Virus record (IMG/VR): IMGVR_UViG_3300037225_000932
Span: 109,352-173,351 of that record
DNA from: a virus
DNA length: 64,000 nt
Direction: 5' to 3' (one strand)
Shown piece after piece: positions 8,678-63,587 of this stretch. Within the stretch, counting starts at the first letter, position 1, and the number at the start of each line of letters is the position of its first letter. Made by a program: the position numbers and the translations under genes. The notes under the pieces were generated by a model. That model was given only the letters and a program-made list of their open reading frames with translations, did no database searches and had not been told where the DNA came from.

Positions 8678-8767
8678 GAAACGAAATCCCCAATAATATG
8701 CCAATAAAGCCATAAGAGAAAAAACGAGAGCAAGAAGAATGAATTGACGAGAAATGTAAGTCCTCAT
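8672..8767 (-). CDS. Tiny membrane protein (31 aa)
   Basis: MRTYISRQFILLALVFSLMA then LLAYYWGFRFP: one transmembrane helix. Start ATG is seven bases from the promoter -10 box (leaderless). The stop TGA is part of the next promoter's CCCTGA. Confidence 0.6.
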   Translation of the reverse strand: MRTYISRQFILLALVFSLMALLAYYWGFRFP

Positions 8768-8773
8768 AGAGAG

Positions 8774-8800
8774 TGTAGAACTTTATGAAAAAAATCAGGG
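8774..8800 (-). promoter_or_regulatory. Phage promoter (CCCTGA/TTCTACA)
   Basis: One mismatch in the -10. Leaderless context for the 31-aa membrane protein. Confidence 0.6.
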
Positions 8801-8815
8801 AGATTATTTTTGCGC

Positions 8816-8853
8816 AAAAAAAATAAAGAAGAGACATCAACTGTCTCTTCTTT
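8816..8853 (-). terminator. Rho-independent terminator
   Basis: AAAGAAGAGACA-GTTGA-TGTCTCTTCTTT, then ATTTTTTTTG. Confidence 0.85.
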
Positions 8854-8965
8854 ATAAGAAAAAGACTTTTTATCTAAATACCGGGCAAACGATAAATGAT
8901 AAAAGTTTTGCCCAGTCAGGAGGCTGGAATACTTCCAGGTCTGACTGCCTTTTTCTTTACAATCG
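8816..8965 (-). ncRNA. Candidate three-way-junction RNA with terminator
   Basis: P1 AAGAAAAAG/CTTTTTCTT (9 bp) encloses P2 CAGTCAG/CTGACTG with inner CTGGAA/TTCCAG, and P3 GGGCAAAAC/GTTTGCCC. A perfect terminator follows. Own promoter at 8966-8992. An open frame crossing both promoters and the terminator was rejected. Confidence 0.55.
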
Positions 8966-8992
8966 TTTAGAACTTTATTTATTTTATCAGGG
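8966..8992 (-). promoter_or_regulatory. Phage promoter (CCCTGA/TTCTAAA)
   Basis: Strict copy. Drives the RNA at 8816-8965. Confidence 0.65.
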
Positions 8993-9007
8993 AGAATAAT
9001 TTTGGCC

Positions 9008-9043
9008 AATAAAATACTCTCCCTTGCTATCAGGAGAGTATCT
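9008..9043 (-). terminator. Rho-independent terminator
   Basis: ATACTCTCC-TGATAGCAA-GGGAGAGTAT then TTTATT, behind the 9077-9574 gene. Confidence 0.75.
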
Positions 9044-11515: not shown

Positions 11516-11731
11516 TCAAAATAACTTGACTATCACTTTATCCCCAACCTTGAGATCTTTCCACCCGTTTTCTGACATGCTAAGATAAAGATAATATTCC
11601 TCAATTTCATCGTCAAGCTGGAGACAAACCGAATCAGGATCACCAAGTCCATCTCCGTGAATACCAACTTTAATTACCCTTGCGGTCATTTCTTTTACTG
11701 CGGGAGCCTGAAATGGATGATAACGTTTCAT
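11516..11731 (-). CDS. Small SH3-like barrel protein
   Basis: 71 residues ending 'GWKDLKVGDKVIVKLF', a typical KOW/TRAM-like strand-turn-strand. N-terminal 'MTARVIKVGIHGDGLGDPDS'. SD AAAGGATAA. Probable small beta-barrel; function unknown. Confidence 0.55.
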   Translation of the reverse strand: MKRYHPFQAPAVKEMTARVIKVGIHGDGLGDPDSVCLQLDDEIEEYYLYLSMSENGWKDLKVGDKVIVKLF

Positions 11732-11749
11732 TGTTTTATCCTTTATTAC

Positions 11750-11777
11750 TTTAGAACTTTATCTCTTTTTTCAGGGA
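11750..11777 (-). promoter_or_regulatory. Phage promoter (CCCTGA/TTCTAAA)
   Basis: Strict copy upstream of the 11516-11731 gene. Confidence 0.65.
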
Positions 11778-11790
11778 AATATTTTTTATA

Positions 11791-11850
11791 ATAAAAACAC
11801 TCTCTTTAACCCTACGACTCTCAAATATGGAGAGGAGGATCAAAGAGAAG
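11791..11850 (-). terminator. Complex terminator
   Basis: CTCTTTGATCC pairs with GGGTTAAAGAG (wobbles), enclosing CTCTC-CATATTT-GAGAG, then GTTTTTATT. Upstream is another hairpin GAGTCTG/CAGACTC (11855-11900). Lies behind the 11930-12151 gene. Confidence 0.6.
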
Positions 11851-11929
11851 TTTATCTAATAAGGGAGTCTGTTATACTTGTCGCTCATTATATCAGACTC
11901 AGCCCTTTATTTTTGTTATGACCTATTTT

Positions 11930-12151
11930 TTACAAATTCGGTGAGATATTATTTTTAATCCAAGCATTCATCCCCTCAAGAACGGTATCCCGATTACCCG
12001 TAAACCCAAATTCTCGCTTAGCAATCGAATAAACTGACTCACCCTTGCGCCGCAAACCCCGTATTTCAAGCTTCAGTGCGGCCCGGAGAATAAGAATACG
12101 TGCATTCTTAACCTGTCGTTCGCCGCTGATTACGATCGCTTTACTTTCCAT
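11930..12151 (-). CDS. Hypothetical helical protein
   Basis: 73 residues: 'LILRAALKLEIRGLRRKGES' then 'AKREFGFTGNRDTVLEGMNAW'. All-helical, Arg-rich; could be a small DNA/RNA-binding protein, but no family recognised. SD GGGAAAG. Confidence 0.6.
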   Translation of the reverse strand: MESKAIVISGERQVKNARILILRAALKLEIRGLRRKGESVYSIAKREFGFTGNRDTVLEGMNAWIKNNISPNL

Positions 12152-12431: not shown

Positions 12432-12445
12432 TAAACATATCTATA

Positions 12446-12653
12446 AACAGAGACACCCTCATATATTTTCTTCTAATCTCTTTCCCAAGAAAAAAAGAAG
12501 AAAATGAGGGTGATGGGAAATAGAGACTTTTTAATTGACCGTAGGAGACTCGAACTCCTATATCCACCTTAATATTCGGTGGCGTCTTACCAAGTTTAAA
12601 CGAACGATCTGGTCTCTACTCTCTGTGCCTTACGGCATTCATTAGTATACTGC
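12446..12653 (-). ncRNA. Three-way-junction RNA carrying a tRNA-like domain
   Basis: Outer helix ACAGAG/CTCTGT. Arm 1: AGAGAC/GTCTCT enclosing a tRNA-like fold (12535-12610). Arm 2: CACCCTCAT/ATGAGGGTG then TTTTCTTCT/AGAAGAAAA. The 3' motif TCTCTGTTTATAG is shared with 25046-25229, and a near variant occurs at 35498-35612. Own promoter at 12654-12680. Confidence 0.6.
12535..12610 (-). tRNA. Atypical tRNA-like domain with 9-base anticodon-type loop
   Basis: Acceptor GATCGT/ACGGTC (6 bp with one wobble), D-stem GTTT/AGAC with GG in its loop, anticodon-type stem CCACC/GGTGG, variable ATAT, perfect T-arm AGGAG-TTCGAGT-CTCCT. The anticodon-type loop GAATATTAA has 9 bases instead of 7, so no anticodon can be assigned with confidence (AUU or UAU possible). 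It may not decode. Confidence 0.5.
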
Positions 12654-15476: not shown

Positions 15477-15624
15477 AAAAAATAGTATCCGCCAGATATC
15501 GTGACGGATACTCTCAAGATTAGCAGTGTTTACTGGCGGAAGCTTAGTCTCACGGTTAGTCCCATTTCAGGATTCCCAGTAACTTAACTGCTTTATTTAG
15601 GAGCCAATAATTTGCTCCAATTCC
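15477..15624 (-). ncRNA. Candidate structured RNA with terminator
   Basis: Hairpin GGAGC-AAATTATTG-GCTCC, then arm GCAG..TTACTGG / CCAGTAA..CTGC, then terminator GTATCCG-TCACGATATCTG-CGGATAC with T6. No gene. Own degenerate promoter at 15625-15650. Confidence 0.45.
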
Positions 15625-15650
15625 TTAGAATTTTCTATTAAAAATCAGGG
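15625..15650 (-). promoter_or_regulatory. Phage promoter, degenerate -10 (ATTCTAAG)
   Basis: CCCTGA intact; drives the RNA at 15477-15624. Confidence 0.5.
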
Positions 15651-15665
15651 CATTTATTTTTGCGC

Positions 15666-15700
15666 AAAAAAGAAATCACCCCCAATTGAGGGTGATTTCT
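15666..15700 (-). terminator. Rho-independent terminator
   Basis: GAAATCACCCTC-AATT-GGGGGTGATTTC then T6, behind the 15727-16125 gene. Confidence 0.85.
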
Positions 15701-15726
15701 TTTACTTTTGAACGATTTAATCGCTT

Positions 15727-16125
15727 TTAGGCGACAACCGTTTCATTCGTCGCCTCGACGGCGGGGGGAACTGCGGGAGTCTCAGCCGTCTTATTCTTCT
15801 CCTTCAACATCTTCGCAAGAACTGCCAACTGGTCAGGAGTCAAATTGAGATCATCCAACTTCTTCTGAAGAGCCAACTTGTCCTGCTCAGCCTTATAAGC
15901 CGGCAAATCGGTGACTTCAGCAAAAACCGGCAACGGCTCAACAACATAAACCCGACCATCAACCGGCTTTGAATTGAGATGATTCACCATTTCAATTCCA
16001 ACCTCCTTACTCTCGACCATCCCAAGAACCGTGCGAACCACCTTCATATTGCTACCCCGACCAGGTGCCTTAGTCGTGTGCTTCTCGAAAACCGCCAAAA
16101 CCGTCTTGCTCGACGCCGTGTCCAT
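15727..16125 (-). CDS. Family protein with Ala/Pro tail (paralog of 33746-34183)
   Basis: 132 residues from ATG 16125 (the longer frame crosses the promoter and terminator). 'VVRTVLGMVESKEVG', 'VNHLNSKPVDGR', 'VVEPLPVFAEVTDLPAYKAE', then helix and an Ala/Pro/Thr tail. The 33746 copy matches block by block. G+C-rich. Leader AAAGGATACGACG before ATG. Function unknown; the flexible acidic tail suggests a binding or structural protein. Confidence 0.7.
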   Translation of the reverse strand: MDTASSKTVLAVFEKHTTKAPGRGSNMKVVRTVLGMVESKEVGIEMVNHLNSKPVDGRVYVVEPLPVFAEVTDLPAYKAEQDKLALQKKLDDLNLTPDQLAVLAKMLKEKNKTAETPAVPPAVEATNETVVA

Positions 16126-24021: not shown

Positions 24022-24210
24022 TCATTTTCCTTTCGATTTAGTGTATTTTCTTAGTTTAAACATATCAGATTTAGACATTCCATAAACAATATGACATTTT
24101 GGACAATGACGATCATTACGGATATCTTCAGGATCGCCATCGTGACTACTTAAAGAATAAGTGGGTCCATTACAATGTTGACAGCGAAGATGATCAGGTT
24201 GTCTTGCCAT
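24022..24210 (-). CDS. Zinc-ribbon protein (copy B)
   Basis: 62 residues: 'HLRCQHCNGPTYSLSSHDGD', 'HCPKCHIVYGMSKSDM'. Two CxxC pairs bind zinc by pattern. Start overlaps the end of 24211-24405; stop overlaps the SD of the next gene, so translation is coupled. Confidence 0.7.
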   Translation of the reverse strand: MARQPDHLRCQHCNGPTYSLSSHDGDPEDIRNDRHCPKCHIVYGMSKSDMFKLRKYTKSKGK

Positions 24211-24405
24211 TTAAGCGTTTATCTCCCTAATTCGCCGTAATTCTCGAACCTTTAGTGAAAGTTTGCCGGCTCGTTCCATCATAGGATTAACCTGATGAGT
24301 AGACCATCCCCCAGTTTTACTCTCTTCAACCCAAGAATAAAGTTGCTGGATCTCATCCTCAAGAGCACGAATAGCCTCACCAAGAGCATCATAAATACTT
24401 TTCAT
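24211..24405 (-). CDS. Small helical protein
   Basis: 64 residues: 'IYDALGEAIRALEDEIQQLY', 'GKLSLKVRELRRIREI'. Coiled-coil-like. SD AAGGAGTAAT. A truncated copy lies at 23524-23628. Confidence 0.65.
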   Translation of the reverse strand: MKSIYDALGEAIRALEDEIQQLYSWVEESKTGGWSTHQVNPMMERAGKLSLKVRELRRIREINA

Positions 24406-24468
24406 TTTTATTACTCCTTCTTTGTTAAAATCTTTTATCTTTATTTAATTTTTCTGGGCGAAAAAATA

Positions 24469-24984
24469 TTACTTCTTTTCCGTCTGATACAAGACTTCTT
24501 GAGCGAAAGCAAGTGCAGCGGAAGCAGAAGTGGAATAACCACAAAGAAAATGTTGAGGAGCAGAAGATTTTGCCCCAGTAGTAGGCATCCCTGTCTTTTC
24601 ATCAACATAACAAACATAATAGTTGGTCAAACCACTTTCGAGAATACGGAGAATACAACCAGACATAAATCGCTGTTCTAAACAAACTCGATAATTACAA
24701 ACTGGTGTATTATTCTTTTTTTCTTTTGCCTCATTTAAACTATCAATCGTTGAATAACCATATAAAGCAGTCAATGCTTCATCTAAAGTTTTAAACCAAT
24801 GAGCCCAAGATCTCCATTTGTTTTCGGGATGAAAATAAGAAAACACATCGAAATTACTTTTCTTCATAATATAATACTGAAAATTCACGCAATCATTAAG
24901 ATTGTATGCCTTCTTCGGCCCGGAAATAGTGACGTTTTCTCCACCAAATTTAAATTCCATCTTAAATCCAACAGAGCTGTTCAT
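24469..24984 (-). CDS. Hypothetical protein, paralog of 30200-30904
   Basis: 171 residues: 'SSVGFKMEFKFGGENVTISG', 'HWFKTLDEALTALYGY', 'CNYRVCLEQRFMSGCILRIL', 'NYYVCYVDEKTG'. The longer 30200 copy shares all blocks. 'F.TLDEAL.ALYGY' also resembles the repeated module of the 42.9-49.2 kb cluster. Function unknown. Confidence 0.65.
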   Translation of the reverse strand: MNSSVGFKMEFKFGGENVTISGPKKAYNLNDCVNFQYYIMKKSNFDVFSYFHPENKWRSWAHWFKTLDEALTALYGYSTIDSLNEAKEKKNNTPVCNYRVCLEQRFMSGCILRILESGLTNYYVCYVDEKTGMPTTGAKSSAPQHFLCGYSTSASAALAFAQEVLYQTEKK

Positions 24985-25045
24985 TGTAAATTTCCTTTGT
25001 GAATTATAGATTTACATTTTTATTTAAGTTTTCAGGGTAAATATA

Positions 25046-25229
25046 TCTATAAACAGAGACACCCTTAAATATTTCATCTTCCTACCAGAAGATTACTTAT
25101 TAAGGGTGTGGTAGTAGAAAATCCTTTTTCGAGCATCATGGGGGACTCGAACCTACCCATTACCCGGTTTAAACCCGGGTCTCCGACCATTAGAGGAACG
25201 ATACCAAAAAGATTTTCTATCTCTGTGCC
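25046..25229 (-). ncRNA. Three-way-junction RNA carrying a tRNA-like domain
   Basis: Outer ACAGAG/CTCTGT. Arm 1: perfect 8-bp AGAAAATC/GATTTTCT enclosing the tRNA-like fold (25132-25204). Arm 2: ACACCCTTAA/TTAAGGGTGT then ATCTTC/GAAGAT. Both flanks (GGCACAGAGA and TCTCTGTTTATAG) match 12446-12653. Transcribed from the promoter at 25313-25339. Confidence 0.6.
25132..25204 (-). tRNA. Atypical tRNA-like domain, UUA-type loop
   Basis: Acceptor GTATCGT/ATGATGC (7 bp, two wobbles), D-stem CTCT/GGAG, anticodon stem CCCGG/CCGGG with loop GTTTAAA, T-loop TTCGAGT. Read canonically the anticodon is UUA, which would pair with the UAA stop codon. The T-stem GTAGG/CCCCC has two mismatches, so activity is doubtful. 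Confidence 0.5.
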
Positions 25230-25312
25230 TAAGATTACTTTGTTGTCCCATCATATTTTCGGGATCATAAACATTTCATCATCGGCTATTCTAATACTAG
25301 TTTAACAATCTC

Positions 25313-25339
25313 TTAGAACTTTTAACTATTTTTCGGGGC
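25313..25339 (-). promoter_or_regulatory. Phage promoter (CCCCGA/TTCTAAG)
   Basis: Drives the tRNA-like RNA; contains the end of the 25322-25636 gene. Confidence 0.6.
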
Positions 25340-25636
25340 AGATTTTTCCATTTCCCTAATTTTATCGTAAAGACACTGAAAAAAATTCATAACACTAACG
25401 TGGGTTTCACCTTCCTTTATATGTCTTTCAATCCTAATCATACCAAAGCTAGAAGCATAATCGACAAACTCTAAAAAGAAAAGATCATCTTCCTTTCTTA
25501 GATAAAGAGTATATCCATAAAGATCATGGTTATCATCTGTGTCTCTAAAGTTCTTAAAATATACTCCATCAAATCTCTGATCAAAGCCATCCCCCTTAGC
25601 AGTTTCAAGAGAAAATGAAACAAAATCAGCGATCAT
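25322..25636 (-). CDS. Hypothetical protein
   Basis: 104 residues: 'FVSFSLETAKGDGFDQRFDG', 'LYLRKEDDLFFLEFVDYASS', 'MNFFQCLYDKIREMEKSAP'. Ends inside the next promoter. SD AAAAAGGACA. No family recognised. Confidence 0.6.
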   Translation of the reverse strand: MIADFVSFSLETAKGDGFDQRFDGVYFKNFRDTDDNHDLYGYTLYLRKEDDLFFLEFVDYASSFGMIRIERHIKEGETHVSVMNFFQCLYDKIREMEKSAPKNS

Positions 25637-27559: not shown

Positions 27560-27632
27560 TGGGACCGGAGGGAGTCGAACCCTCGACCAATAGCTTAAAA
27601 GGCTACTGCTCTACCTACTGAGCTACAGTCCC
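27560..27632 (-). tRNA. tRNA-Lys(UUU)
   Basis: Acceptor GGGACTG/CGGTCCC (one wobble), D-stem GCTC/GAGC, anticodon stem GTAGC/GCTAT with loop CTTTTAA, T-arm GAGGG-TTCGACT-CCCTC, discriminator A. All standard; 73 bases. Confidence 0.93.
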
Positions 27633-27752
27633 AAAGCGCTTACCTGTAAGATGATTTTACGCTCAACTATTGCAAATCATTGAGGATATTGTAGATTGCT
27701 ATTTCTACACTTTTCGTCAAATCATTTAGGCTCTCCTTGGGTAAGCTATTCT
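27633..27752 (-). ncRNA. Structured leader of the tRNA-Lys transcript
   Basis: GCTTACC/GGTAAGC closes a block holding TGTAGA-AATAGCAA-TCTACA, with AATGATTTG twice. No gene. Lies between promoter 27753-27779 and the tRNA. Confidence 0.35.
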
Positions 27753-30199: not shown

Positions 30200-30904
30200 T
30201 TACCGTTCTAATGCTATTTTAATGAAAGCAGCACAGGCAATTAAGAAACTATCGTGAAAATTGCTTTCATTAGAAGTAAGAGGATATCCATCTGCTCCAT
30301 CTACATATCCAGCATAATACTTTGTTGGACTTACTTCTAATATTCGAAGAATAGTGGAAGCCGTTTGATGCTCCCCACAAATCCGATAATTACAAGCATA
30401 CTTAATTGGCTTCTTTGCCTTTTGGATTTTTTCATTTTCCTTATTAATAACTTCTCTTGCCTGCTCAAAACTATCAAAGTAATAAATGTCTTTCGTCCAC
30501 TTTCCATCCTTATTCATAAACTCCATCTTATAAGGATCTCGATAAACGTGAACCTGATAGTTAAGGAAAGTATTTTCTCTTCCATGAAACCTTCCCACCG
30601 AACCAGAGAGAAAAACAAGCTTTCCGTCTAATGCAACATTATATTCTTTTTGAACGGTCTCATTATGACCAAAAAGAGCCCTACAAACTTCATTTACAGA
30701 ATTAAACCAGTGAGCCCCGGCTGGCTGCCATTTTCCGTTAAAAGTAAGATAGTAAATATAGCCATCTATTTTCTTCCAACCATAATACTTGTAATTATTC
30801 TCTTCAGAAGCATATTCAAAGGGAGTGTCAATACCGGCAATATGAACCGTTTGACCATCAAATTCAAAAGACACATCAAATCCGACAGAGCTTTCACGTG
30901 TCAT
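30200..30904 (-). CDS. Hypothetical protein, paralog of 24469-24984
   Basis: 234 residues: 'SSVGFDVSFEFDGQTVHIAG', 'AGAHWFNSVNEVCRALFGHN', an extra middle block 'NYQVHVYRDPYKMEFMNKDG' with 'IYYFDSFEQAREVIN', then 'CNYRICGEHQTASTILRILE'. It looks like an internally duplicated form of the 24469 protein. Function unknown. Confidence 0.65.
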   Translation of the reverse strand: MTRESSVGFDVSFEFDGQTVHIAGIDTPFEYASEENNYKYYGWKKIDGYIYYLTFNGKWQPAGAHWFNSVNEVCRALFGHNETVQKEYNVALDGKLVFLSGSVGRFHGRENTFLNYQVHVYRDPYKMEFMNKDGKWTKDIYYFDSFEQAREVINKENEKIQKAKKPIKYACNYRICGEHQTASTILRILEVSPTKYYAGYVDGADGYPLTSNESNFHDSFLIACAAFIKIALER

Positions 30905-30969: not shown

Positions 30970-31740
30970 TTATTTCCATATCATATCAAATACTTTTACT
31001 AATAAATCAGTTGCTTCTTTATCATCAACTCTATCCGGCAAAACAGAAGTGTCTAAAACTTCTTTAAGTCTTTCTAATCCTTTACCAATATCATCTACGC
31101 ACTTTTGTGTATCATTCTTATCATAAGTAATACCATTTCTAATATTCAAAAGATTTTGAATATCTGGCCGTGGAAAAGTAATTTTGCCAGTTTTTAACAA
31201 TTCTAAACCTTGAGCCGCAATTCTAAAGGCGTGCATTGCGAACTTCGTATCAAAACCCTTTTCTTCAGTAATGTATCGTCGTCCAGTTTTATTACTCTGT
31301 TTAATTAAAAGTTTATTCATTTGAGAATGTGAAAATCCGTCAAAAGAAAAATAAACTTTACGACTTAAAAGTTTTAATCCTCTTTCTCTTAACAAATTCC
31401 ACAAAACATTTTGAAAAACAATACAATTATCTGGAACAAAAAGAGTTTCAATGACATTAGGATTACAGCCATAAATGAGTTTAACCCATTTTCTAACATC
31501 ATAGAAATTGACTTCTGAATTAAATTGTTCAAATCGTTTTTGCCAACAATCAGGAATCTCACCAGTTATCCATTTGGAGCGTGGTGAATAATAAATTAAA
31601 ACATAATCATGATCACTTGTCGGAAGTGAAGTTCCATACATTTGAGAACCAGAAGTATGAAAAAGAAGAATATTATTTAATATCCATTCTTGTCCATCAG
31701 AAATTAGTCTATCAGTTAGACTTTTAATAGTTAGAGGCAT
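30970..31740 (-). CDS. RlaP-like nucleotidyltransferase
   Basis: 256 residues. Residues 28-46 'HTSGSQMYGTSLPTSDHDY' give the polymerase-beta-type G-S motif and the D-x-D pair (D43, D45). This matches the DNA polymerase beta superfamily nucleotidyltransferases (PF10127, RlaP/YcgL type) that often sit with RNA-repair genes. Probably adds nucleotides to an RNA or small-molecule end. Full length for the family. Confidence 0.8.
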   Translation of the reverse strand: MPLTIKSLTDRLISDGQEWILNNILLFHTSGSQMYGTSLPTSDHDYVLIYYSPRSKWITGEIPDCWQKRFEQFNSEVNFYDVRKWVKLIYGCNPNVIETLFVPDNCIVFQNVLWNLLRERGLKLLSRKVYFSFDGFSHSQMNKLLIKQSNKTGRRYITEEKGFDTKFAMHAFRIAAQGLELLKTGKITFPRPDIQNLLNIRNGITYDKNDTQKCVDDIGKGLERLKEVLDTSVLPDRVDDKEATDLLVKVFDMIWK

Positions 31741-32052: not shown

Positions 32053-32067
32053 AATTTACTCTAAAAG

Positions 32068-32139
32068 TATCCCGTAGGAGGCTCGAACTCCTGTTTTCGG
32101 CGTGAAGGGCCAATATCCTAGCCACTAGATGAACGGGAC
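32068..32139 (-). tRNA. tRNA-Glu(UUC)
   Basis: Acceptor GTCCCGT/ACGGGAT (G1-U72 wobble), anticodon stem TTGGC/GCCGA with loop CCTTCAC, T-arm with TTCGAGC, discriminator A. Anticodon UUC. Position 33 is C instead of U, unusual. Otherwise close to bacterial tRNA-Glu. Confidence 0.8.
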
Positions 32140-45068: not shown

Positions 45069-45347
45069 TCACCAATGGTAAACAATATAAATCATATAAA
45101 TATTGTTTGACAAAACAAAACTTAAAGCGTCAATATGAGCATATTCGTGTTCCTGTTTCCATGCTTCAAGATTTTGATTAGGTATCCATTCAATGAACTG
45201 TCCACTTTTCATTGAATAGTGATTGTCATACTTAGCAATTTCTTGAGCCTGAAGGTCTCTCTTTTTGTCTTCAAGAGAAATAAGCATTAAAAAAACAAAA
45301 ATAATACACACACAATAAAGCAAAAACATTCCAAAAGACTTGTTCAT
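45069..45347 (-). CDS. Membrane-anchored protein
   Basis: 92 residues from MNKSFGMFLLYCVCIIFVFL (SD AAGGAAAATAAA): N-terminal helix, then 'DNHYSMKSGQFIEWIPNQNL' and a hydrophobic end 'LSNNIYMIYIVYHW'. Function unknown. Confidence 0.55.
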   Translation of the reverse strand: MNKSFGMFLLYCVCIIFVFLMLISLEDKKRDLQAQEIAKYDNHYSMKSGQFIEWIPNQNLEAWKQEHEYAHIDALSFVLSNNIYMIYIVYHW

Positions 45348-45348
45348 T

Positions 45349-45426
45349 TTATTTTCCTTGAATGTAAAAAGAAACAACATAAAAACCATCTTTACTCACG
45401 GACTTCTCAATAGTATAAGTTTTCAT
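45349..45426 (-). pseudogene. N-terminal stub of a cluster paralog (25 aa)
   Basis: MKTYTIEKSVSKDGFYVVSF YIQGK matches the first residues of 48116-49165 (METYTIKQDTK..) and 47414-48073 (MKTYKI..). The rest of the gene is absent. Confidence 0.5.
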
Positions 45427-59853: not shown

Positions 59854-59927
59854 CCTCAGCGGTGGGGGTCGAACCCACATAATCCAGTTACGGTACCTTG
59901 TTTAGAAGACAAGGCCGATACGCTGAG
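59854..59927 (-). tRNA. tRNA-Arg(UCU)-like gene lacking a normal D-arm
   Basis: Perfect acceptor CTCAGCG/CGCTGAG and T-arm GTGGG-TTCGACC-CCCAC. Anticodon arm CTTGT/ACAAG with loop CTTCTAA gives UCU (AGA codons). Only seven bases (TATCGGC) lie between acceptor and anticodon stem, so no D-arm; CGG may instead extend the anticodon stem (pairing with CCG). About 18 bases precede the T-arm. Confidence 0.6.
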
Positions 59928-59929
59928 TA

Positions 59930-60058
59930 TTAAAATTAGGGAATTATGGCTAATACGCATTATTAGGTGCCATTTAATTGAATTGTTTAGTCTTTCCGCT
60001 GTGGCTAATAGTTTTTATTTATGCCACTTTAGTATAAACAACTCAATCTTTCCCTAAT
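59930..60058 (-). ncRNA. Three-way-junction leader of the tRNA-Arg transcript
   Basis: P1 ATTAGGGAA/TTCCCTAAT (9 bp), arm 1 ATTGAGTTGTTTA/TAAACAATTCAAT (13 bp, one wobble) tipped by GTGGC/GCCAC, arm 2 ATGGC..GCCAT with CTAATA/TATTAG. No gene. Directly upstream of the tRNA. Confidence 0.55.
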
Positions 60059-60592: not shown

Positions 60593-60619
60593 ATTAGAAC
60601 TTTATAGTAAAAATCAGGG
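60593..60619 (-). promoter_or_regulatory. Phage promoter (CCCTGA/TTCTAAT)
   Basis: Upstream of 60338-60571. Confidence 0.6.
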
Positions 60620-60639
60620 AATAATTATTTTTTCGCAAA

Positions 60640-60679
60640 ATTAAAATTCACTATAAGATTTTACTCTTATAGTGAATTG
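60640..60679 (-). terminator. Rho-independent terminator
   Basis: AATTCACTATAAGA-GTAAAA-TCTTATAGTGAATT then TTAATTTT. Confidence 0.7.
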
Positions 60680-60797
60680 GTAAGGACGGCCATCGCCGTT
60701 GCGGTTTGTCCTCTATTTATTAGTATTCTTGGTTTGTTGTGAAATGTCTCATTCATCATTGTCAACCAATCATACTATTTGTTGAGGACACTTTTCT
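60640..60797 (-). ncRNA. Candidate structured RNA with terminator
   Basis: P1 TGTCCTC/GAGGACA encloses AGTAT/ATACT and TTGGTT/AACCAA; then GCAACGGCGATGGCCGT hairpin (also hinted at 22185), then terminator ATTCACTATAAGA/TCTTATAGTGAAT. No gene. Own promoter at 60798-60824. Confidence 0.5.
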
Positions 60798-60824
60798 ATA
60801 ACTTTATTTTCCTTTTCAGGGAGA
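60798..60824 (-). promoter_or_regulatory. Phage promoter, degenerate -10 (TTATAGAA)
   Basis: CCCTGA and AATAAAG intact. Drives the RNA at 60640-60797. Confidence 0.5.
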
Positions 60825-60872
60825 AATATTATTCCTTAAAAATAAGTTCACCTAAGTCTTTTTTAGGAACAA

Positions 60873-61359: not shown

Positions 61360-62175
61360 TTACAAACTTTTTGTCAAAAATGTCTTAAGTTTTGTCAGAG
61401 CCTTGACTTCCAAAAGACGAATATTTTCGCGTGAATAATTCATTATTTTAGCGATATCCTGATAAGTCAGTTTTTCTCCATTCTCTTTTTGCTCTAAATA
61501 CCTGAATTTCAAAGCCTTTAACTCTTCTGTCTTTAGTGCTGCTAAGTTTTTGCTTATTGCTTCTTTCATTTTATCTAACATTTCTATCTTTTTATCTTCA
61601 TCATTTTCGTCTTTAGCAATATTTAATTCTTTATTATTATCACAATAGACGATTTGTAATTTATTTTCTTTTGACTTATCTTTAAGCATTTTAATAAAAG
61701 TCATTCTTAGAGAGTTTACAATATAAGTGGAAAACTTATTGCCAATAGAAATGTCAAATTTACGCATTGCTCTCATGACAGTCTCATTGCCATTTGAGAG
61801 CATTTCTGAAAAATCTAAGCCACTCTTTAAGAACCTCTTGGCAAAAGATATGACTAAAGCTAAATTACATCCTACAATACACTCTTCTATTTCTTTTATA
61901 TTTTTTCTTATTGTTCGTCTTTTATCTGGATTTATTTCTAAAGATAACTGATAATAATTGTAATTTAATCTTAAAAATAAACCTCTTTCTTCTTCTTGGC
62001 TTAATTCTGATCTGACCAATAAACTTTCATTTATTTTTTTACCACTTACGACCTTAAAATACCAACTATTATCTATTGGCTTTGGTTTTGGTAGTTTATT
62101 AATCTCATCTTCAGCATTCGAGCGATGAAACAACTCATTGTCGATATAAGTTATTATGCTTTCTGTTAGTTCCAT
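61360..62175 (-). CDS. Sigma-70-family RNA polymerase sigma factor
   Basis: 271 residues. Region 2 at about 100-165 ('NLALVISFAKRFLKSGLDFS', 'GNKFSTYIVNSLRMTFIKML'), region 4 at about 205-270 ('LTYQDIAKIMNYSRENIRLL' helix-turn-helix, then 'EVKALTKLKTFL'). It has the layout of a primary-like but short alternative sigma. Very strong SD (AAAGGAGG). Likely recognises the CCCTGA/TTCTAAA promoters found about 70 times in this window; this link is inferred. Confidence 0.85.
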   Translation of the reverse strand: MELTESIITYIDNELFHRSNAEDEINKLPKPKPIDNSWYFKVVSGKKINESLLVRSELSQEEERGLFLRLNYNYYQLSLEINPDKRRTIRKNIKEIEECIVGCNLALVISFAKRFLKSGLDFSEMLSNGNETVMRAMRKFDISIGNKFSTYIVNSLRMTFIKMLKDKSKENKLQIVYCDNNKELNIAKDENDEDKKIEMLDKMKEAISKNLAALKTEELKALKFRYLEQKENGEKLTYQDIAKIMNYSRENIRLLEVKALTKLKTFLTKSL

Positions 62176-62372: not shown

Positions 62373-63587
62373 TTAAAGATCATCATTTTGTGAAAATCGC
62401 GTTAAAGAACTGGTGGGCTTATATCCCTCTAAAACATTATTAGTTGGACGAAAATAATTAAAGAATGATTTTCTCGTCTTGCCTGGTTTCTCTATCTCAT
62501 CTAAAAACTTATTCTTTCTACAATGAAATACGAATTTCTTACAAATAACTGGTAAAAAATTATCGGTAAACATTAAACCAACTTCTTTATCACTTAAATG
62601 TTTAGTTGCTTCAAAAAACTCTTTAACTTGTTTTAGATAAAGTTCAACTTTAGAAGTAAGAATAGAGACAATACCATCAAAATCTTTCCAAAACTCTTCT
62701 GGAAGCAATTTCTTAACAGCAACTAAATCCTGACATTCTGACATCATTTCCCAAATAGTTAAGGGCTTACAGCCAGAAATTATTCTGTGAACTGCACAAT
62801 ATTCACGGCCTTTTACTTTAACTCTATATCCATTTTCAAATCTAACAACGAAACCTTCTTGATCATATTTTAACGTTTCTGAGATTTTTAATAAATCATC
62901 AACAGATTTATATCCATAAACTTTAGGTCTACGAAGACCTGTTTTTTGAGCAATACCATCTAAATAAATTCGATCACATTCTTTTCCGTAATTCTCTCCT
63001 TCTTCACCACAATATGCTGATAAGAGAACAAGACCAGCATAATCATATTTAACTACAATACGATTTTCTGGATAAATAACTTCACAAATATAAGTGAATT
63101 TAGGATTTAAGTATTCAGTTTTTATATTTTTGCGCAAAAAATCTTCTGCCCAAATTGCTTGTTCAGAAAAGAATGAACCTCGGGTAGAAGTATGCCATTC
63201 TCCATCGACCATCCACACGAAACAGCATGACCCATCAATTTTTTCTCCAATAGTAAATCCTTCTTTTGGAAGTTCAGGAGAGATACCTTCATTTTCACTT
63301 GTTTTAATCCAAGCCTCTCCATAATTGAAGAACTTTGGCAGGCACATGGCTACAATTTTCTTATTTTTAACATCTAAAATTAAACCTCTGGCAATTAAAG
63401 TAAATTCGTTCCAATGTTTTTCAAAAGAACAATTAACACTATAGTTATATAACTCCAAGTCGCCATTGACTTGCTTATTGATATAAAGTGTTTCAACTTC
63501 TTTGTTTAAGCCGGTATAAAGTTCATCAAACGACATTTTACTGGCGGGATGAAATGAAGTATCAAAAATAAAATCCTTTAAGTCCAT
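62373..63587 (-). CDS. T4 Rnl1-like RNA ligase
   Basis: 404 residues. Nucleotidyltransferase motifs: I 'GEKIDGSCC' (adenylated K116), III-type 'TYICEVIYPENRIVVKY', IV 'EGFVVRF', V 'YRVKVKGREY'. N-terminal 'FTLIARGLILD' and 'FFNYGEAW' also fit RnlA-type ligases, which join 5'-phosphate and 3'-OH RNA ends and repair cut tRNAs. Full length. Confidence 0.85.
   Translation of the reverse strand: MDLKDFIFDTSFHPASKMSFDELYTGLNKEVETLYINKQVNGDLELYNYSVNCSFEKHWNEFTLIARGLILDVKNKKIVAMCLPKFFNYGEAWIKTSENEGISPELPKEGFTIGEKIDGSCCFVWMVDGEWHTSTRGSFFSEQAIWAEDFLRKNIKTEYLNPKFTYICEVIYPENRIVVKYDYAGLVLLSAYCGEEGENYGKECDRIYLDGIAQKTGLRRPKVYGYKSVDDLLKISETLKYDQEGFVVRFENGYRVKVKGREYCAVHRIISGCKPLTIWEMMSECQDLVAVKKLLPEEFWKDFDGIVSILTSKVELYLKQVKEFFEATKHLSDKEVGLMFTDNFLPVICKKFVFHCRKNKFLDEIEKPGKTRKSFFNYFRPTNNVLEGYKPTSSLTRFSQNDDL

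What the first reader, a model, noticed from the sequence alone, without database searches (positions are those of the whole stretch)
25046..25229. Second copy of the tRNA-in-junction RNA, with a UUA-type anticodon
Same outer helix and flanks (GGCACAGAGA, TCTCTGTTTATAG) as the 12.4 kb element, 12.6 kb away, but different arm sequences, so base pairs are kept while bases change. The inner tRNA-like domain would have anticodon UUA, pairing with UAA stop codons. Its T-stem has mismatches.
Basis: partly seen in the sequence, partly recalled or inferred. Interest (0 to 1): 0.85.

Follow-up and report, generated by a model that had tools for sequence, protein, structure and literature searches.

The report
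Phage RNA enclosing a tRNA look-alike
An uncultured phage carries two copies of a ~185-base folded RNA that locks a complete tRNA shape, with no free end, inside a larger structure; it is probably a tRNA mimic rather than a working stop-codon-reading tRNA, and nothing like it was found elsewhere.

Summary
On the minus strand at 25229-25046 there is a strongly folded RNA (MFE z -4.7): a three-way junction whose outer helix and flanks match a second copy at 12629-12440 (z -4.5). A full tRNA cloverleaf sits at the tip of one arm in both copies (Rfam tRNA 36.1 and 31.0 bits). The copies differ, yet 11 aligned base pairs changed on both sides and still pair, and the two tRNA domains are each other's closest match, then the phage's own tRNA-Glu. 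So this is a duplicated RNA family descended from a captured tRNA.

The anticodon of this copy is UUA, but working ochre suppression is unlikely. UAA ends 65% of this phage's ORFs, read-through-like arrangements are not enriched, and the other copy has a 9-nt anticodon loop. Both copies are sealed by a leader-trailer helix (14 and 10 bp) absent from the phage's other tRNAs. The 'T-stem mismatches' are a 2-nt UA bulge in a five G-C-pair stem.

Best reading: an early-expressed, non-decoding tRNA mimic (decoy or adaptor for tRNA-acting proteins), in a phage that also encodes a T4-type RNA ligase and an RlaP repair enzyme. Function is inferred. No homologue was found elsewhere.

The parts
25046..25229 (-). 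copy E25: whole structured RNA element (three-way junction)
   Evidence: MFE -66.1, z -4.67; pair probabilities
25220..25226 (-). outer helix P1, 5' strand ACAGAGA
   Evidence: pairs with 25053-25059; identical in E12
25053..25059 (-). outer helix P1, 3' strand TCTCTGT, followed by conserved TTATAGATAT
25206..25219 (-). clamp helix P2, 5' strand TAGAAAATCTTTTT (leader)
   Evidence: 14 uninterrupted pairs with the trailer; chance about 2.5e-4 at random places
25115..25128 (-). clamp helix P2, 3' strand AAAAGGATTTTCTA (trailer)
25131..25204 (-). tRNA cloverleaf domain, anticodon UUA (25172-25170), T-stem with 2-nt UA bulge, no encoded CCA (UCGA at the 3' end)
   Evidence: ARAGORN, RF00005 36.1 bits
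25060..25108 (-). third-arm hairpin P3 (CACCCTTAA...TTAAGGGTG)
25308..25341 (-). promoter-like repeat upstream of E25
   Evidence: member of a repeat with at least 47 copies in the window; promoter role inferred from position before genes
12440..12629 (-). copy E12: whole structured RNA element, same architecture
   Evidence: MFE -60.9, z -4.47
12535..12610 (-). tRNA-like domain of E12, 9-nt anticodon loop, 1:72 mismatch
   Evidence: RF00005 31.0 bits
12649..12680 (-). promoter-like repeat just upstream of E12
32067..32139 (-). phage tRNA-Glu(UUC), closest ordinary tRNA to both embedded domains
30970..31740 (-). RlaP RNA-repair nucleotidyltransferase gene (context)
   Evidence: PF10127 E 2.4e-15
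62373..63587 (-). T4 RnlA-type RNA ligase gene (context)
   Evidence: PF09511 E 7.5e-18, phrog_562

Best explanation
E25 and E12 are two paralogous copies of a phage-specific structured RNA, probably transcribed early from their own promoters. Each holds a complete tRNA cloverleaf, descended from a tRNA-Glu-like gene, at the tip of one arm of a three-way junction. Because the acceptor stem continues into a paired clamp, the cloverleaf has no free 3' end and would not be charged. It acts as a non-decoding tRNA mimic: it presents the tRNA elbow (D-loop/T-loop) to tRNA-binding proteins, most likely as a decoy or adaptor in the conflict over tRNA cleavage and repair. Shown: anatomy, common descent, conservation of elbow residues while decoding and end features drift, promoter-like repeats upstream, RNA-repair genes in the window. 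Inferred: expression, no processing, and decoy or adaptor function.
For: Strong folding of both copies. Both tRNA domains are significant. 11 two-sided compensated pairs against 2 unpaired. The two tRNA domains are each other's best match (z 5.4-5.7), then tRNA-Glu (z 3.9-4.5), so the embedded tRNA was in the ancestor. Elbow residues U8, G18G19 and the UUCGAGU T-loop are kept in both, while the anticodon loop (9 nt in E12), pair 1:72 (E12), A21 and T-stem geometry (E25) have drifted (sequence). Clamp of 14 and 10 bp, against at most 7 in the phage's 7 other tRNAs and at most 9 in 31 tRNAs of another phage. RNA ligase and RlaP are encoded in the same window. Precedents for the idea: phage tRNAs countering host tRNases (PMC10264068, PMC11555353) and a suggestion that a YrlA tRNA-like domain could competitively inhibit an anticodon nuclease (PMC7790460).
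Against: No expression data. Only two copies in one genome, so covariation rests on one comparison, partly chosen by the folds. RNase P, RNase III or an RNase Z could still release a tRNA. No host, target protein or defence system is known. E25 alone is close to a usable tRNA.
Confidence: 0.45

Rival explanations
1. Pre-tRNA reading: the three-way junction is a precursor from which a working tRNA is cut. E25 would yield an ochre suppressor of Glu/Gln type, E12 a tRNA with an expanded anticodon loop.
For: ARAGORN and Rfam accept E25 as a tRNA. Other phage tRNAs also lack an encoded CCA, so 3' trimming plus CCA addition is the norm here. UUA is one change from UUC or UUG. The phage has a clean amber-type (CUA) tRNA elsewhere.
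Against: UAA is the main stop; no excess of UAA-linked ORF pairs; leader and trailer are paired up to the acceptor stem; T-stem bulge in E25; 9-nt anticodon loop and 1:72 mismatch in E12.
Confidence: 0.25
2. Y-RNA-like tether: the closing stem is bound by a ring or other RNA-binding protein and the tRNA-like domain docks a partner such as PNPase, as in bacterial YrlA RNPs.
For: Same general plan, paired ends plus tRNA-like domain (description in PMC8394870). Jumbo phages sometimes encode TROVE proteins beside RNA repair (PMC7824862); this phage has RNA-repair genes.
Against: No TROVE or RtcB match in the 173 kb record. No Rfam match other than tRNA above chance level. A full cloverleaf and an extra long hairpin are not in the cited description of YrlA. 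The record may be incomplete.
Confidence: 0.13
3. The tRNA part is a passenger: a tRNA gene landed in an unrelated structured RNA whose junction and third arm do the work, and the duplicated tRNA is decaying.
For: Primary sequence is best conserved in the outer helix and 3' flank, not in the tRNA. Both tRNA domains have defects.
Against: The cloverleaf is kept in both copies by compensatory changes, including the elbow residues, which simple decay would not keep.
Confidence: 0.12
4. Cis-acting leader controlling the next gene.
For: Each element precedes a gene on the same strand.
Against: A promoter-like repeat lies between element and next gene in E12 and a weaker version in E25; the downstream genes are unrelated.
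Confidence: 0.05

Closest known systems
Bacterial Y RNAs (YrlA)
   Same: 5' and 3' ends pair into a stem and a tRNA-like domain continues from it; tRNA mimic without a free acceptor end.
   Different: Here a full cloverleaf with anticodon arm, a three-way junction with a long extra hairpin, no Rsr/TROVE gene, no Rfam match beyond tRNA.
GOLLD RNA
   Same: Phage-borne ornate RNA that sometimes contains a (pseudo) tRNA (PMC6582537, PMC12286853).
   Different: GOLLD exceeds 400-800 nt and has its own conserved core; no GOLLD match here.
Theta ribozyme-linked phage suppressor tRNAs
   Same: Phage suppressor-type tRNA beside a structured RNA, no encoded CCA (PMC10879173).
   Different: Theta ribozymes lie at the tRNA 3' end in recoded (mainly UAG) phages; here the trailer pairs with the leader, no HDV-like match, standard code.
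Ordinary phage tRNA / ochre suppressor tRNA
   Same: Cloverleaf, T-loop, U33, UUA anticodon in E25.
   Different: Clamped in a larger RNA, T-stem bulge, sister copy with 9-nt anticodon loop.

Membership tests
Functional ochre-suppressor tRNA | cloverleaf with UUA anticodon in a 7-nt loop with U33 | tested here: met
   E25 only: GUUUAAA loop; E12 has a 9-nt loop
Functional ochre-suppressor tRNA | regular acceptor and T arms | tested here: not met
   E25 T-stem carries a 2-nt UA bulge; acceptor continues into a 14-bp clamp after a 3-nt bulge
Functional ochre-suppressor tRNA | UAA codons to be read through in the phage genes | tested here: not met
   UAA is the main stop, 106 of 163 ORFs; no enrichment of UAA-linked ORF pairs
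Functional ochre-suppressor tRNA | charged, CCA-tailed mature RNA | not testable with these tools
   needs RNA from infected cells
Bacterial Y RNA (YrlA) | stem formed by 5' and 3' ends with a tRNA-like domain | tested here: met
   folds, tRNA matches
Bacterial Y RNA (YrlA) | linked Rsr/Ro60 (TROVE) gene | tested here: not met
   no PF05731 match in 173 kb; record may be incomplete
Bacterial Y RNA (YrlA) | match to a described Y RNA family | tested here: not met
   cmscan of Rfam 15 at E up to 1: tRNA and chance-level families only
Theta (HDV-like) ribozyme | HDV-like double pseudoknot starting at the tRNA 3' end | tested here: not met
   trailer pairs with leader; no HDV-type match at E up to 1; the published descriptor itself was not run
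Retron ncRNA | linked reverse transcriptase | tested here: not met
   no PF00078 match
GOLLD | large RNA with conserved 3' core | tested here: not met
   no Rfam match in the record

The most novel reading that the evidence does not exclude
A new class of phage non-coding RNA in which a captured tRNA was locked into a three-way junction to become a charge-proof tRNA decoy or adaptor against host tRNA-targeting defence, duplicated and diversified in the anticodon loop.
Probability: 0.3. Interest if true: 0.85.

Novelty: new variant of a known kind. Interest (0 to 1): 0.55.

Why it matters
Why phages carry tRNAs and tRNA-like RNAs is an old open question. An RNA that keeps the tRNA shape while giving up the end needed for charging would be a direct natural test of the idea that some phage tRNAs are decoys rather than decoding molecules. 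Two diverged copies show which parts selection keeps.

Tried and rejected
Homologues: exact end motif in viral contigs (one hit inside what reads as a protein gene), paired-end motif and genome contigs; the candidates lacked the tRNA-in-junction fold and looked like chance. blastn in phages: none. Terminase, RNA ligase and RlaP queries gave no relatives in IMG/VR; a DUF6876 relative (L050) has no tRNA. The closest terminase relative, LR745208, has 37 tRNA matches but no such element. Genome-wide recoding of UAA: rejected. Retron and Ro/RtcB links: rejected. A first shuffle test of leader-trailer pairing was too blunt for E12 and was replaced by the helix-length control. A first sliding fold scan timed out. 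A covariance model was not built, as two sequences would give little power.

Full report
What was checked. The window is bases 109352-173351 of a 173,351-base linear virus record. It is a tailed phage (terminase, tail fibre and ribonucleotide reductase genes) with no close DNA relative in 50,697 phage records and a terminase only about 25% identical to its best match.

Observation. The element lies on the minus strand, 25229 to 25046. Its ends are shared exactly with a second element at 12629-12440, and only these two copies exist in the record. Both fold far better than shuffles. The fold has three parts: an outer helix ACAGAGA/UCUCUGU; an arm made of a clamp helix topped by a tRNA cloverleaf; and a third arm with a long hairpin stacked directly on the outer helix. 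Pair probabilities in native flanks are mostly high, with a weak D-stem and a weak inner acceptor in E25.

tRNA domain. Rfam's tRNA model matches E25 with 36.1 bits and E12 with 31.0 bits, above the gathering score of 29, with E-values 4e-7 and 1e-5 for the whole record. A scan for T-arms found 9 in the record against 0.4 expected; all belong to tRNAs, the tmRNA, a split tRNA, the D-armless tRNA-like gene or E12. E25 has loop GUUUAAA, anticodon UUA. Its T-stem is GGG-UA-GG against CCCCC: five pairs with a 2-nt bulge, not mismatches. E12 has a 9-nt anticodon loop and an A-A at 1:72.

Descent and constraint. In a hand-made helix alignment, 28 pairs are unchanged, 4 changed on one side, 11 on both sides, and 2 do not pair. 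The two tRNA domains resemble each other more than any other tRNA of the phage, and next the tRNA-Glu at 32067. The elements are therefore most simply read as duplicates that already held the tRNA, and both kept the cloverleaf while diverging. The outer helix never varies and so neither supports nor weakens the structure by covariation.

The clamp. In E25, 14 uninterrupted pairs join leader and trailer next to the acceptor stem, with the 3-nt CGA bulged where CCA would be; in E12 there are 10. Random places in this genome give 14 or more in about 0.025% of cases; 7 other tRNAs of this phage reach at most 7; 31 tRNAs of another phage reach at most 9. The clamp is thus a specific feature of these two elements.

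Ochre suppression. UAA ends 106 of 163 ORFs. ORF pairs joined by one in-frame stop are 17 UAA, 6 UGA, 2 UAG, in line with stop usage, and most downstream parts start with their own ATG soon after. Nothing calls for a UAA-reading tRNA, and the sister element could not serve as one in the usual way. A separate, clean CUA tRNA exists at 45284 of the record, so suppressor-type tRNAs are not foreign to this phage.

Context. The window carries dozens of copies of a promoter-like repeat, CCCTGA-N-AAAGTTCTAAA; one lies upstream of each element, which suggests separate early transcripts (inferred). The neighbourhood holds tRNA-Ile, tRNA-Lys and tRNA-Glu, an RlaP nucleotidyltransferase, and farther on a T4-type RNA ligase. 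RlaP and RNA ligases are described as phage tools for repairing cleaved tRNAs (PMC7824862).

Interpretation. The features kept in both copies are those of the tRNA elbow; those lost or drifting are the anticodon loop and the acceptor end. The acceptor end is sealed. This fits a tRNA mimic better than a decoding tRNA. The nearest design is the bacterial Y RNA, a closing stem plus a tRNA-like domain (PMC8394870), but the linked Ro protein is absent from the record and no described family matches. A decoy role against tRNA-cleaving defences is the most likely specific function, by analogy with PMC10264068, PMC11555353 and the suggestion in PMC7790460; it is not shown.

Limits. Two copies from one metagenomic phage; no expression data; host unknown; searches of larger metagenome sets were not available; the record may be a fragment.

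Noticed in passing
window 59854-59927 (-), with structured RNA 59930-60058: A tRNA-like gene that seems to lack a D-arm (RF00005 30.6 bits, 7-bp anticodon stem, loop CUUCUAA), directly preceded by a strongly folded three-way-junction RNA (z -4.25).
   Followed up: partly
window 27560-27750 (-): tRNA-Lys preceded by a compact branched RNA closed by GCUUACC/GGUAAGC (z -3.5 for the whole stretch).
   Followed up: partly
whole window, e.g. 3538-63000: At least 47 copies of a promoter-like repeat CCCTGA-N12-14-AAAGTTCTAAA on the minus strand, densest in the first part of the window; the phage encodes its own sigma factor (61360-62175).
   Followed up: partly
L005:4297-5414 (record 24097-25214): A tRNA that looks split: 5' half and 3' half about 1 kb apart, with a tRNA-Gln and an HNH-like reading frame between them; no group I intron match in Rfam.
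   Followed up: partly
L005:5767-6143: Phage-encoded tmRNA with tag ANTELALAA.
   Followed up: no
L006:5633-5780 (record 45233-45380): Amber-type (CUA) tRNA flanked by GCUUCUGU/ACAGAAGC, an 8-bp enclosing helix whose outer parts resemble tRNA acceptor ends.
   Followed up: partly
window 60601-60850, 8761-9010, 15561-15810, 11721-11970 (-): Further strongly folded non-coding stretches between promoter-like repeats, several ending in terminator-like hairpins.
   Followed up: no
window 24469-24984 and 30200-30904 (-): Paralogous small proteins without Pfam or phage matches; the first lies just downstream of E25.
   Followed up: no
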